A stretch of DNA of 64,000 nt from Mycobacterium spongiae (lineage in GTDB: Bacteria; Actinomycetota; Actinomycetes; Mycobacteriales; Mycobacteriaceae), in the NCBI RefSeq assembly GCF_018278905.1, contig NZ_CP046600.1, forward strand, positions 2,170,001 to 2,234,000, given 5' to 3'. The translations under genes were made by a program, and so were the position numbers. The notes below the pieces were generated by a model that was not told where the DNA came from, made no database searches, and saw only the letters and a list, made by a program, of their open reading frames with translations. Of the stretch, positions 21,657 to 26,609 are shown piece by piece. Position 1 is the stretch's first letter; the number at the start of each line of letters is the position of its first letter.

Positions 21657-22544
21657 TCAGCCTCGCGGGCTTGCGCGGGTGACCTCGTCCAGCACCTCTC
21701 GCAGGTGAACCAGAATCCACAGGTGCCCTTGCCCGGGCACGATGTTGGCCTGACAGGACGGGATGACGTCGCTCAAGTATTTTCCCATTGCAGGTGGAAC
21801 GCTCCGATCCAGCTCGCACGACCACAGCAGGACCTCGGTGCGGATCTGGTCTAACGCAAAGCCCCAGGGACGCCCGTGATTGGCGGCCATGTCGTCGACC
21901 ATCCCCGCTGCGCCACCGCGCACCGCTTCGGCGAAGTCTTTGACCAGCATCTCGTGAATCTCCGGTCGGGCGAGGATGGCTTTGTCCACGTCGTGAATCT
22001 TGTACTTCATGGTGTCGAGGTATCGCCGCGGATGGCGTCGGATAACTGCCGCCAGGAATCGGGTGTTCGCGCTGGACAGCCAAGGCACATACCACGTCAG
22101 TTTCATGAAGAACCGGTTGGTGCCGCTGATTCCGTCGAAGACGCCAGGAGCGTCGGTCGGTGCGGGAGATGAGACGATGCCCACCGTCGTCAGGCGCTGC
22201 GGCATCTTCCAGGCGCACGCCAACGCACCGGGACCGCCACCGGAGATACCGACGATCGCGAACCCGGGGATGGCTAACGAATCTGCCAGTGTCTCAACGT
22301 CATTCGCCCAGTCCAGGAGCGTGCGACCCGGGTTGGGATCGGAGCCGCCGTAGCCGGGACGATCCGGCGCGATGATTCGCACGGCGGGCGGAAACGAACC
22401 ATCGGGCAGCATGCCCCAGCTAAGACGCGTGCCCGGAAGTCCGTGGAAGACGAAGACGGGAACACCCGCACCGTCGCCATACTCCGCATAGGCCAACCGC
22501 CGATCGCCGGACACCCGAATCGCAGCATCGATTCGCGGCACCAT
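21657..22544 (-). CDS. alpha/beta hydrolase, distal gene of the P450/BVMO cluster
   Basis: A 295-residue alpha/beta-fold hydrolase. The oxyanion region is FVFHGLPGTR (residues ~33-40), the nucleophile elbow is VGISGGGPG with Ser near residue 101, the acid is probably Asp in SCELDRSVPP, and the His is in VPGQGHLWI. The frame is open to 22688, but the Met at 22544 avoids overlap with the monooxygenase gene and gives the normal domain start. It lies 43 bases after that gene in the same direction. I do not recall a homologue at this site in M. tuberculosis. Ester or epoxide substrates are both possible. Confidence 0.8.
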   Translation of the reverse strand: MVPRIDAAIRVSGDRRLAYAEYGDGAGVPVFVFHGLPGTRLSWGMLPDGSFPPAVRIIAPDRPGYGGSDPNPGRTLLDWANDVETLADSLAIPGFAIVGISGGGPGALACAWKMPQRLTTVGIVSSPAPTDAPGVFDGISGTNRFFMKLTWYVPWLSSANTRFLAAVIRRHPRRYLDTMKYKIHDVDKAILARPEIHEMLVKDFAEAVRGGAAGMVDDMAANHGRPWGFALDQIRTEVLLWSCELDRSVPPAMGKYLSDVIPSCQANIVPGQGHLWILVHLREVLDEVTRASPRG

Positions 22545-22587
22545 CACAGCGACTGTCCTGTGTGGAAGGTCAGGCGATTGCTCGTCA

Positions 22588-24084
22588 CTAGGCGCTGAAT
22601 CGGTAGTTGTCGAGATCGAAATGGCGACTGCGCCAGTAGGCCTCCACAGTAGTGGTGGGGCGCAGCGGGACGTCGCCGTTCTTGTCAAAGTAGTAGCTGT
22701 TGGCCCGCCGGCAGCTGTCCTGCCAGAAGACCTGGCGGTAGCGCCGGCGCATCACTTCGGCGAAGTAGCGGGCGTTGGCTTCCTCGGTCACCTCGACCCG
22801 GGTCGCGTCGTTGCGCCGGGCCCGTCTCAGGCAGCGCACGATGTGGTGCGTCTGGGTCTCGATGAGTGCGAAATACGATGAGCCGACGTAGCCGTACGGG
22901 CCGAACACGGTGAAAAAGTTCGGGTAGCCGGGAACGCTGACACCTTCGTATGCCTGCAGCCGGTGCTCGTCCCAGAACCGACTCAAGGATCGCCCGCCGC
23001 TTCCGGCGACGGCATAGGTCGGCACGTTGTCGGTGTCCATGACGCTGAAACCCGTTGCCAGCACCAGCACGTCGATCTCGTGGTTGTCGCCGTCGGTGGT
23101 AGCCACCGCGGTGGGCGTGATCTTGTCGATCGGCTCAGTGACCAGGCGAACGTTCTCGCGGTTGAACGTCGACAGATAGCTGTTGTGAAAGCCCGGCCGT
23201 TTGCAGCCCACCGCATACTGCGGGGTGAGCTGCTCGCGCACCGCCGGATCTTTGACCTGCTGGCGCAGATAGCGCCGGCCCGACGCTGCCATCCAGCGGG
23301 CCAGCGGAAACAGCTTGAAGTAGTGCGCCGCTATCGGGAAGGTCGCCTCGATCAATGCCTGGCTGAAGAAGCGATGGAGAGGACGACCCCCCGGAATTCG
23401 CAGCGCCCAGCGAACCGGCGCCGGTAGCGGGACGTCGAGTTTGGGGAAGCACCAGATCGGTGTGCGCTGAAATACCGTGAGGTGGGAAACAATTGGTGCA
23501 ATCTCGGGAATGACCTGTACGGCCGAGGCGCCGGTGCCGATGATCCCGACGCGCTTGCCGGTCAGGTCCTCGTTGTGGTTCCAGCGCGCGGTGTGCATGG
23601 TGGCACCGTCGAACGAATCCACGCCGTCGATGTCAGGCAGTTTCGGTACTGTCAGAACACCACTGGCGCTGATCAGGAACCTGGCCGTGATTTCGCCGCC
23701 CGGGTCCGTTTGAACGCGCCACAGCCTGTGCTCGTCGTCGAAGTCAGCGGCGATGACCTTGGTGTTGAACCGGATCCGGGACCGGATGCCGTACTTGTCG
23801 ACACAGTGTTCGGCGTACGCCCTCAGTTCATGCCCCGGTGCGTAGGTCCGCGTCCAGTCCGGACTCTGTTCAAACGAGTACTGATAGGAGAACGACGGAA
23901 TGTCCACGGCAATACCGGGATAGGTGTTCCAGTACCAGGTGCCGCCGACGCCGTCGCCGGCTTCGACCACGAGGTAATCGGTGAACCCCGCCTGGTCGAG
24001 CTTGATGGCGGCGCCGATCCCGGAGAATCCGGCACCGACGATCAGGGTGTGGTAATTGGGTCTGCTATGCGATTGCGTGCTCAT
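22588..24084 (-). CDS. flavin-containing monooxygenase, type I Baeyer-Villiger class, Rv1393c-like
   Basis: A 498-residue FAD/NADPH oxygenase. The FAD Rossmann motif is GAGFSGIG at residues 17-24 and the NADPH motif is GIIGTGASAVQ at about 180-190. Between them the Baeyer-Villiger fingerprint FxGxxxHxxxW is fully conserved (Phe158, Gly160, His164, Trp168). Such enzymes insert oxygen next to a ketone to give an ester or lactone, or oxidise sulfur compounds; EthA is the known mycobacterial relative. The stop of cyp132 overlaps its ATG by 4 bases, so P450 and BVMO are co-translated. The natural substrate is unknown. Confidence 0.92.
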   Translation of the reverse strand: MSTQSHSRPNYHTLIVGAGFSGIGAAIKLDQAGFTDYLVVEAGDGVGGTWYWNTYPGIAVDIPSFSYQYSFEQSPDWTRTYAPGHELRAYAEHCVDKYGIRSRIRFNTKVIAADFDDEHRLWRVQTDPGGEITARFLISASGVLTVPKLPDIDGVDSFDGATMHTARWNHNEDLTGKRVGIIGTGASAVQVIPEIAPIVSHLTVFQRTPIWCFPKLDVPLPAPVRWALRIPGGRPLHRFFSQALIEATFPIAAHYFKLFPLARWMAASGRRYLRQQVKDPAVREQLTPQYAVGCKRPGFHNSYLSTFNRENVRLVTEPIDKITPTAVATTDGDNHEIDVLVLATGFSVMDTDNVPTYAVAGSGGRSLSRFWDEHRLQAYEGVSVPGYPNFFTVFGPYGYVGSSYFALIETQTHHIVRCLRRARRNDATRVEVTEEANARYFAEVMRRRYRQVFWQDSCRRANSYYFDKNGDVPLRPTTTVEAYWRSRHFDLDNYRFSA

Positions 24085-25475: not shown

Positions 25476-25550
25476 GGCTCCACTGTATGGGTGACATGGG
25501 CGGTCGGTAATGAGACGATGGGACAAAGAGTTGGGAATTTAGGACAGCTC
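25476..25550. promoter_or_regulatory. divergent control region between cyp132 and its AraC regulator
   Basis: The 75 bases between the two divergent starts must hold both promoters. In M. tuberculosis the homologous regulator Rv1395 was reported to bind this region, to activate cyp132 and to repress itself. No clear direct-repeat operator could be picked out by eye. AGGACAGCTC just before 25551 supplies the ribosome-binding site for the regulator. Confidence 0.5.
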
Positions 25551-26609
25551 ATGGGAGGTTTGACCCCTGTCGGGGTGCCGGCCGACGTGCGGCATCCGGT
25601 TTATGCGACCCGGGTGTTGTGCGAGGTGGCCAACGAACGCGGGGTGCCTACGTGTGACGTGCTTGCGGGCACGGCGATCGAGCTGGCGGATCTCGATGAC
25701 CCGGAAACCTTGGTCAGCGGCCTCGACGAGATCACCACGGTGCGCCAATTGCTGGCCCGGCTGCCAGATGACGCTGGCGTGGGGATCGACGTGGGCAGCC
25801 GGTTTTCGCTCACCCATATCGGGTTGTTCGGGTTCGCCGCGATGTCGTGTGCCACCCTTCGCGAGTTGTTCGCCATCGCCATGCGCTATTTCGCGCTGAC
25901 CATGTTGCACATCGACATCACGCTGTTCGAAACCGCCGACGACTGCCTGTTCGAGCTGGAAGCCGGCCACTTGCCCGCCGACGTGCGGCGATTCTTCATC
26001 GAACGCGATATCGCCGGAATCATTACGACAACAATGAGTTTCACGCTTCCCGTGGCAGAGAAGTATGCCGAGCGGGTATCGGCAGAGCTGGCGGTCGATG
26101 AGGAGCTGATGCGTCCGCTGCTCGGGGTCGTCCCACTAAGCGATGTCGCATTCGGCCGCGCACACAACCGTGTGCATTTCCCGCGCGCGATGTTCGATGA
26201 GCCGCTACCGCAGGCTGATCGGCACACACTGGAAATGTGCCTCGCGCAATGCGATGTGCTGATGCAACGCAACGAACAACGTCGGGGAATCACCGCGCTG
26301 GTGCGTACCAACCTGTTCCGCGATTCTGGGATTTTCCCAACGCTTTCCGACATCGCTTCCGAGCTTGACATGCATCCTCGAACCCTGCGGCGCCGGCTTG
26401 CCGCGGAGGGCACGTCTTTTCGGGCGTTGCTGAACGAAGCCCGCTCGGCGGTAGCCGTCGACTTACTCCGGAACGTGGGGCTGACCGTGGAAGAGGTGTC
26501 CACGCGGCTGGGCTACACCGAAGTCTCGACGTTCTCGCACGCCTTCAAACGCTGGTATGGCGTTGCGCCTACCCGATACTCGCGACCGTCTGAGATGGTG
26601 CCGCCGTAA
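25551..26609 (+). CDS. AraC-family transcriptional regulator, Rv1395-like
   Basis: 352 residues. The N-terminal ~200 residues match the arabinose-binding-type domain of the OruR/ArgR-like AraC group. The C-terminal ~100 residues form the double HTH (SDIASELDMHPRTLRRRLAAEGTSFRALLNEAR, then TVEEVSTRLGYTEVSTFSHAFKRWYGVAPTRYS). ATG 25551 is chosen for its AGGA ribosome-binding site; ATG 25518 would add 11 residues. Divergent from cyp132, whose M. tuberculosis counterpart it activates. It probably controls the cyp132-BVMO-hydrolase transcript. Confidence 0.92.
   Translation: MGGLTPVGVPADVRHPVYATRVLCEVANERGVPTCDVLAGTAIELADLDDPETLVSGLDEITTVRQLLARLPDDAGVGIDVGSRFSLTHIGLFGFAAMSCATLRELFAIAMRYFALTMLHIDITLFETADDCLFELEAGHLPADVRRFFIERDIAGIITTTMSFTLPVAEKYAERVSAELAVDEELMRPLLGVVPLSDVAFGRAHNRVHFPRAMFDEPLPQADRHTLEMCLAQCDVLMQRNEQRRGITALVRTNLFRDSGIFPTLSDIASELDMHPRTLRRRLAAEGTSFRALLNEARSAVAVDLLRNVGLTVEEVSTRLGYTEVSTFSHAFKRWYGVAPTRYSRPSEMVPP

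What the first reader, a model, noticed from the sequence alone, without database searches (positions are those of the whole stretch)
21657..26609. Three-enzyme oxidative cluster: CYP132, Baeyer-Villiger monooxygenase and an alpha/beta hydrolase under a divergent AraC regulator
The P450 and the BVMO overlap by 4 bases and the hydrolase follows 43 bases later. The BVMO fingerprint is intact. A P450 could hydroxylate, a dehydrogenase elsewhere could give a ketone, the BVMO could convert it to an ester or lactone, and the hydrolase could open it: a complete oxidative ring or chain cleavage route. M. tuberculosis lacks the hydrolase at this site as I recall it, so the full module may be an undescribed catabolic or signal-degrading pathway. 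This is the best candidate in the window for a new system.
Basis: partly seen in the sequence, partly recalled or inferred. Interest (0 to 1): 0.7.

Follow-up and report, generated by a model that had tools for sequence, protein, structure and literature searches.

The report
Trimmed oxidation cluster with borrowed hydrolase
An old mycobacterial gene group for oxidising fatty molecules, here in a sponge-dwelling relative of the tuberculosis germ, carries one extra enzyme gene that this species picked up from elsewhere, so the trio is not a conserved new system, although the chemistry proposed for it is sensible.

Summary
The trio is not a conserved module: of 111 distinct BVMO+metK loci, 40 have a full-length P450 beside BVMO and 1 (the window) has the hydrolase. 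Its orthologue turned up in 1 other of 248 Mycobacterium genomes and in 1 genome of another genus, beside other genes, with homology ending at the gene and synonymous divergence far below metK: a horizontally acquired single gene. The pathway logic fares better: all 8 CYP132-like P450/BVMO pairs examined outside this locus have a short-chain dehydrogenase between the two and a hydrolase or esterase gene beside them (one a fragment). At the metK locus LipH/LipI-type esterase genes lie upstream of BVMO in 104 of 111 loci; lipI is frame-broken in M. spongiae. A direct-repeat operator, single-copy in this genome, sits before the P450. Best reading: an old AraC-controlled P450-BVMO unit, with LipH/LipI as usual ester-cleaving partners and a swapped-in esterase here. 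The BVMO fingerprint is not quite intact: its last residue is N, against D in 136 of 137 rows.

The parts
21657..22544 (-). alpha/beta hydrolase, serine esterase/lactonase type, horizontally acquired single gene
   Evidence: PF12697/PF00561; homologous DNA block 21644-22572 in G043 and 21678-22572 in G352; triad Ser101-Asp246-His274 by position; AlphaFold2 model pLDDT 91.8, nearest solved folds alpha/beta hydrolases and esterases
22588..24084 (-). type I Baeyer-Villiger monooxygenase-like flavoenzyme, 498 aa
   Evidence: Pfam and PDB matches to cyclohexanone, steroid and phenylacetone monooxygenases; motifs
24081..25475 (-). cytochrome P450, CYP132-like (family name recalled), 464 aa from the ATG
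   Evidence: PF00067; motifs; 46 of 248 genus genomes match at E<=1e-120
25509..25546 (-). presumed AraC operator: two TGTCC direct repeats with 21-base period in the 75-base divergent gap
   Evidence: TGTCC-N16-TGTCC in 44 of 45 distinct AraC-P450 regions, the exception being L119; one genome copy at up to 3 mismatches
25551..26609 (+). AraC-type regulator, Rv1395-like (name recalled), 352 aa
   Evidence: PF12625 + PF12833
27920..28888 (-). LipH-like HSL-type esterase, likely usual ester-cleaving partner of this BVMO
   Evidence: PF07859; LipH/LipI-type gene upstream of BVMO on the same strand in 104 of 111 loci
28908..29869 (-). LipI-like gene with a broken reading frame (N- and C-terminal parts in different frames)
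   Evidence: ORF list and three-frame view

Best explanation
An AraC-type regulator senses a lipid-like ligand (inferred) and switches on, from one dedicated direct-repeat operator, a P450 and the BVMO that overlaps it. The P450 hydroxylates a long-chain or cyclic lipid, an unlinked dehydrogenase makes the ketone, the BVMO makes an ester or lactone, and a serine hydrolase cleaves it. The unit shares an ancestor with longer AraC/P450/SDR/BVMO/hydrolase cassettes; at the metK locus the SDR is missing and the esterase role most likely falls to the neighbouring LipH/LipI. In M. spongiae lipI is broken and an unrelated alpha/beta hydrolase has been inserted 43 bases behind BVMO by horizontal transfer; it is probably co-transcribed and adds or replaces the cleavage step. 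Shown: gene order, distribution, acquisition, operator conservation. Inferred: co-transcription, order of reactions, substrate, the hydrolase's part.
For: P450-BVMO adjacency in 38 of 46 P450 genomes, -7 to 20 bp between match edges, and 6 of the other 8 with BVMO one or two genes away. SDR in 8 of 8 P450/BVMO pairs outside the locus, each with a hydrolase/esterase gene or, in L142, a fragment. BVMO overlapping a PF07859 hydrolase gene on two plasmids and a BVMO-PF07859 fusion in Burkholderia glumae (Pfam run on L165 and the fusion). LipH/LipI-type genes upstream of BVMO in 104 of 111 loci, within 150 bp in 39 of the 68 that scores as having neither P450 nor AraC. Transfer: hydrolase dS 0.32 (G352) and 0.62 (G043) against metK 1.11 and 1.01. 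dN/dS 0.20-0.27, so under constraint. In L135 the P450 is a remnant but AraC, operator and BVMO stay.
Against: 71 of 111 metK loci lack a full-length P450 beside BVMO, so BVMO has a role without it. No SDR in the window cluster; the best SDR match in the genome is only 43%. The other two close hydrolase carriers have it away from such a pair. The window hydrolase has no significant similarity to the partner hydrolases of other clusters. The Tsukamurella plasmid has BVMO and SDR but no hydrolase listed next to them. The fingerprint ends in N. No expression or enzyme data.
Confidence: 0.5

Rival explanations
1. The hydrolase is a passenger: a single transferred gene that landed in the variable gap between metK and BVMO and acts on unrelated substrates; only AraC-P450-BVMO is a functional unit.
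For: Gap size 3 to 5543 bp among 111 loci and varied contents; different neighbours in G043 and G352; no similarity to other BVMO-partner hydrolases.
Against: Same strand, 43 bases behind BVMO, no terminator-like site found in that gap; constrained; lipI is broken in the same genome.
Confidence: 0.37
2. The P450-BVMO unit tailors or detoxifies a lipid (cell-envelope or host-derived) and no ester cleavage follows; LipH/LipI and the hydrolase are unrelated neighbours.
For: The MymA locus, another mycobacterial BVMO cluster, is described as acting in mycolic acid metabolism (PMC10272862 passages); no SDR in the window cluster.
Against: Hydrolase or esterase genes recur beside related BVMOs, once as a fusion.
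Confidence: 0.25
3. The locus is decaying in M. spongiae and BVMO is impaired by the D to N change.
For: N in 1 of 137 rows; lipI frame broken; P450 remnants in 4 of 71 other loci without full-length P450.
Against: P450, BVMO and AraC frames are open; dN/dS to M. simulans 0.13-0.14 for BVMO and P450; the change is mild.
Confidence: 0.12

Closest known systems
Rv1393c-cyp132-Rv1395 of M. tuberculosis
   Same: An AraC regulator (Rv1395) activating a divergent cytochrome gene is described in PMC3900636 (passages); Rv1393c is listed there as a BVMO in PMC9044951 (passages); gene order next to metK is recalled.
   Different: M. spongiae adds the hydrolase. Direct sequence comparison with M. tuberculosis was not made.
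VirS-mymA operon (Rv3082c; Rv3083-Rv3089)
   Same: Regulator VirS controlling a BVMO gene beside an esterase gene, lipR (PMC10272862 passages; VirS as AraC-type and divergent is recalled).
   Different: No P450 in that list; FadD13 present; not compared by sequence here.
AraC/P450/SDR/BVMO/hydrolase cassettes (L104 Propionibacteriales MAG, L142 G006) and relatives without a matching AraC hit (L105, L107, L143, L154-L156)
   Same: P450 52-63% and BVMO 61-63% identical; AraC divergent with a TGTCC repeat in L104 and L142.
   Different: SDR between P450 and BVMO; hydrolases of other subfamilies.
Subterminal alkane oxidation (Thalassolituus oleivorans)
   Same: Monooxygenase, alcohol dehydrogenase, BVMO, esterase order (PMC6304351 passages).
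   Different: Genes there are scattered; substrate here unknown; no dehydrogenase in the window cluster.

Membership tests
Type I Baeyer-Villiger monooxygenase | Two Rossmann GxGxx(G/A) motifs | tested here: met
   GAGFSG and GTGASA
Type I Baeyer-Villiger monooxygenase | Fingerprint FxGxxxHxxxW(P/D) (recalled) | tested here: inconclusive
   All but the last position fit; N instead of P/D, 136 of 137 rows have D
Type I Baeyer-Villiger monooxygenase | Oxidises ketones to esters | not testable with these tools
   needs an assay
CYP132 P450 | P450 fold motifs | tested here: met
   PF00067; motifs
CYP132 P450 | At least 40% identity to M. tuberculosis CYP132 (threshold recalled) | not tested
   no sequence of that name in the loci
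Rv1395-type AraC regulator | AraC domains, divergent from P450, conserved operator | tested here: met
   binding itself not testable
Complete subterminal oxidation module in one cluster | Alcohol dehydrogenase in the cluster | tested here: not met
   none between or beside these genes in 18500-31000; best SDR elsewhere 43%
   1 of 40 loci with full-length P450, the window itself
Serine alpha/beta hydrolase (esterase/lactonase type) | G-x-S-x-G nucleophile with Asp and His | tested here: met
   GISGG, D246, H274; in 12 aligned rows H274 is invariant, D246 nearly so, and two rows have Ala at the Ser column

The most novel reading that the evidence does not exclude
A lipid signal of a eukaryotic host (sphingoid or other long-chain lipid; here a sponge), sensed by the AraC protein, is cut by P450 hydroxylation, Baeyer-Villiger oxidation and an interchangeable esterase: a signal-degrading route in relatives of the tuberculosis germ whose last step is a swappable slot, with M. 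spongiae caught after replacing its broken lipI by a transferred hydrolase.
Probability: 0.1. Interest if true: 0.75.

Novelty: new variant of a known kind. Interest (0 to 1): 0.4.

Why it matters
It gives testable partners to an uncharacterised P450 and BVMO: an SDR and hydrolases in related cassettes, HSL-type esterases LipH/LipI at the metK locus, and one operator for the AraC protein. It corrects the idea that the hydrolase defines a new conserved system, and offers a natural case of possible esterase exchange beside a BVMO.

Tried and rejected
Rejected: a conserved three-enzyme module. Rejected: the hydrolase as an old gene lost elsewhere; three close carriers in three contexts and divergence far below metK fit transfer better. 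No donor was found: besides the window, 1 of 401 family and 1 of 296 phylum genomes matched (86% and 43%); 89 plasmid records matched, all under 60% identity. GC content does not mark it as foreign (0.639 against 0.62-0.71 for neighbours). Led nowhere: Rfam on 21000-27000, no hits; sigma-70 scan of 21380-25620, none, and 2 terminator-like sites against 2.0 expected. The 18 changes of P450 presence on the BVMO tree cannot tell gain from loss; P450 C-terminal remnants abutting BVMO in L135, L212, L218 and L222 show loss in those four loci. One search scored three of these by a hit near BVMO (L135 as P450+AraC, L222 as P450 only, L212 as AraC only); counts of P450 here are therefore taken.

Papers: passages only of PMC3900636, PMC11361433, PMC6469627, PMC9044951, PMC5741622, PMC6304351 and PMC10272862; listings for the rest; Recchi 2003 not held, known from PMC3900636 and recall. 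No paper on this hydrolase or on a lipH-BVMO link was seen in searches (0 papers for Rv1399c with Baeyer-Villiger), 73, 77 and 86, all in one open-licence library.

Full report
What is there. On the minus strand lie an alpha/beta hydrolase (21657-22544), a BVMO (22588-24084) and a P450 (24081-25475); an AraC-type regulator (25551-26609) is divergent. The 4-base overlap and 43-base gap are as reported. The assembly is one contig of 5,581,157 bases, the size printed for Mycobacterium spongiae FSD4b-SM, CP046600 (PMC11361433 passages). The P450 hallmarks are intact. The BVMO fingerprint is intact but for its last residue, N, where 136 of 137 aligned rows have D.

Is the trio a conserved system? 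No. In 248 Mycobacterium genomes, the window's included, BVMO matches 235 at E<=1e-120, the P450 46, and the hydrolase 2 at E<=1e-70: the window genome and G043, 81% identical. At E<=1e-25 218 of 248 have some match, but the other listed matches are at most 40% identical (a capped list). Of the 46 genomes with the P450, 38 have BVMO within -7 to 20 bp of it, by match edges; in 6 of the other 8 BVMO follows after one or two genes (G006, G087, G091, G168, G189, G242), and in 2 (G085, G231) none is in the stretch fetched. In 111 distinct BVMO+metK loci 40 have a full-length P450 beside BVMO, 4 more have only a C-terminal remnant of it (L135, L212, L218, L222), and 1, the window, has the hydrolase. 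None of 39 named P450 loci matches it at E<=1e-20, though some of them end before metK.

Where the hydrolase comes from. Besides G043, an 86% identical gene is in G352, of another genus of the family (2 of 401 genomes matched, window included), and a 43% one in G828 (2 of 296). Its neighbours in G043 and G352 differ from these and from each other. DNA similarity to G043 covers window 21644-22572 and fades just outside the gene. Synonymous divergence is 0.32 to G352 and 0.62 to G043, against 1.11 and 1.01 for metK of the same genomes; dN/dS is 0.20-0.27. So it is a constrained gene moved as a single unit. It has a Ser-Asp-His triad and an esterase-type fold.

What the relatives say about function. 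The usual order here is coaBC-metK-[variable gap]-BVMO-(P450-AraC)-lipH-lipI-priA. LipH/LipI-type genes, found with the LipH query, lie upstream of BVMO on the same strand in 104 of 111 loci; in 39 of the 68 loci that scores as having neither P450 nor AraC they are within 150 bp, an apparent lipI-lipH-BVMO operon. Outside this locus I examined 8 distinct CYP132-like P450/BVMO pairs, perhaps five lineages (L104; L105; L107, the same cluster as L141; L142; and the related L143, L154, L155, L156). All 8 have an SDR between P450 and BVMO. The hydrolase gene is of PF00561 type in L105 and L107 (Pfam) and in L104 (by BLAST), a fragment in L142, and a PF00144-type esterase in L143 (Pfam) and, by similarity, L154-L156. 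On plasmids of M. chubuense NBB4 and M. aubagnense the BVMO gene overlaps a hydrolase gene (PF07859 in the first) in a cluster with SDR, P450, fatty acid-CoA ligase and acyl-CoA dehydrogenase; in Burkholderia glumae a BVMO is fused to a PF07859 hydrolase, near AraC and GMC oxidoreductase genes. A Tsukamurella plasmid has BVMO beside an SDR and no hydrolase next to it. The window hydrolase has no significant BLAST similarity to the partners compared, so if it serves the pathway it was recruited independently.

Regulation. The 75-base gap between P450 and AraC holds a 38-base direct repeat at 25509-25546. TGTCC-N16-TGTCC is in all 44 distinct intergenic regions, the full pattern in 40; a 45th region, L119 (a second P450/AraC pair of M. 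spongiae), lacks it. The genome has one copy at up to 3 mismatches. A similar repeat precedes the P450 in L104 and L142. In L135 the P450 is a remnant while AraC, the repeat and BVMO stay, suggesting BVMO belongs to this control. The authors of PMC3900636 predicted a sphingolipid ligand for Rv1395 from its similarity to SphR (passages); I did not test this.

Mechanism and certainty. The hydrolase's late arrival is near certain (0.93); P450-BVMO as one AraC-controlled unit is likely (0.75); the hydroxylation-ketone-ester-cleavage sequence is plausible (0.5); the hydrolase's part in it is open (0.5). The ketone-forming enzyme is missing from the cluster. Against my reading: 71 of 111 loci keep BVMO without a full-length P450, the other close hydrolase carriers have no such pair beside it, and there are no expression data.

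Verdict. A known kind of locus (Rv1393c-cyp132-Rv1395; compare VirS-mymA) in a species-specific variant.

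Noticed in passing
window 28908-29869: LipI-like esterase gene with its two halves in different reading frames; a likely pseudogene in M. spongiae.
   Followed up: partly
L119 (G000:C1, about 2609825-2612335): A second CYP132-like P450 (73%) with a divergent AraC gene (66%) in the M. spongiae genome, without a BVMO nearby and without the full operator (not run on it).
   Followed up: partly
L135, L212, L218, L222, upstream of BVMO: C-terminal P450 remnants directly before BVMO (32 to 99 residues): deletion scars; L212 also keeps a fragment of AraC.
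   Followed up: partly
metK-BVMO gap in L079, L136 and others: The gap is a variable slot: a GMC oxidoreductase in L079 and a pyridoxamine-oxidase-like gene in L136 (Pfam), look-alikes in several other loci.
   Followed up: partly
window 26706-27524: HpcH/HpaI aldolase gene (PF03328) between AraC and LipH.
   Followed up: no
L241 11667-14925: Another AraC-type gene divergent from a BVMO-like gene elsewhere in the M. spongiae genome.
   Followed up: no
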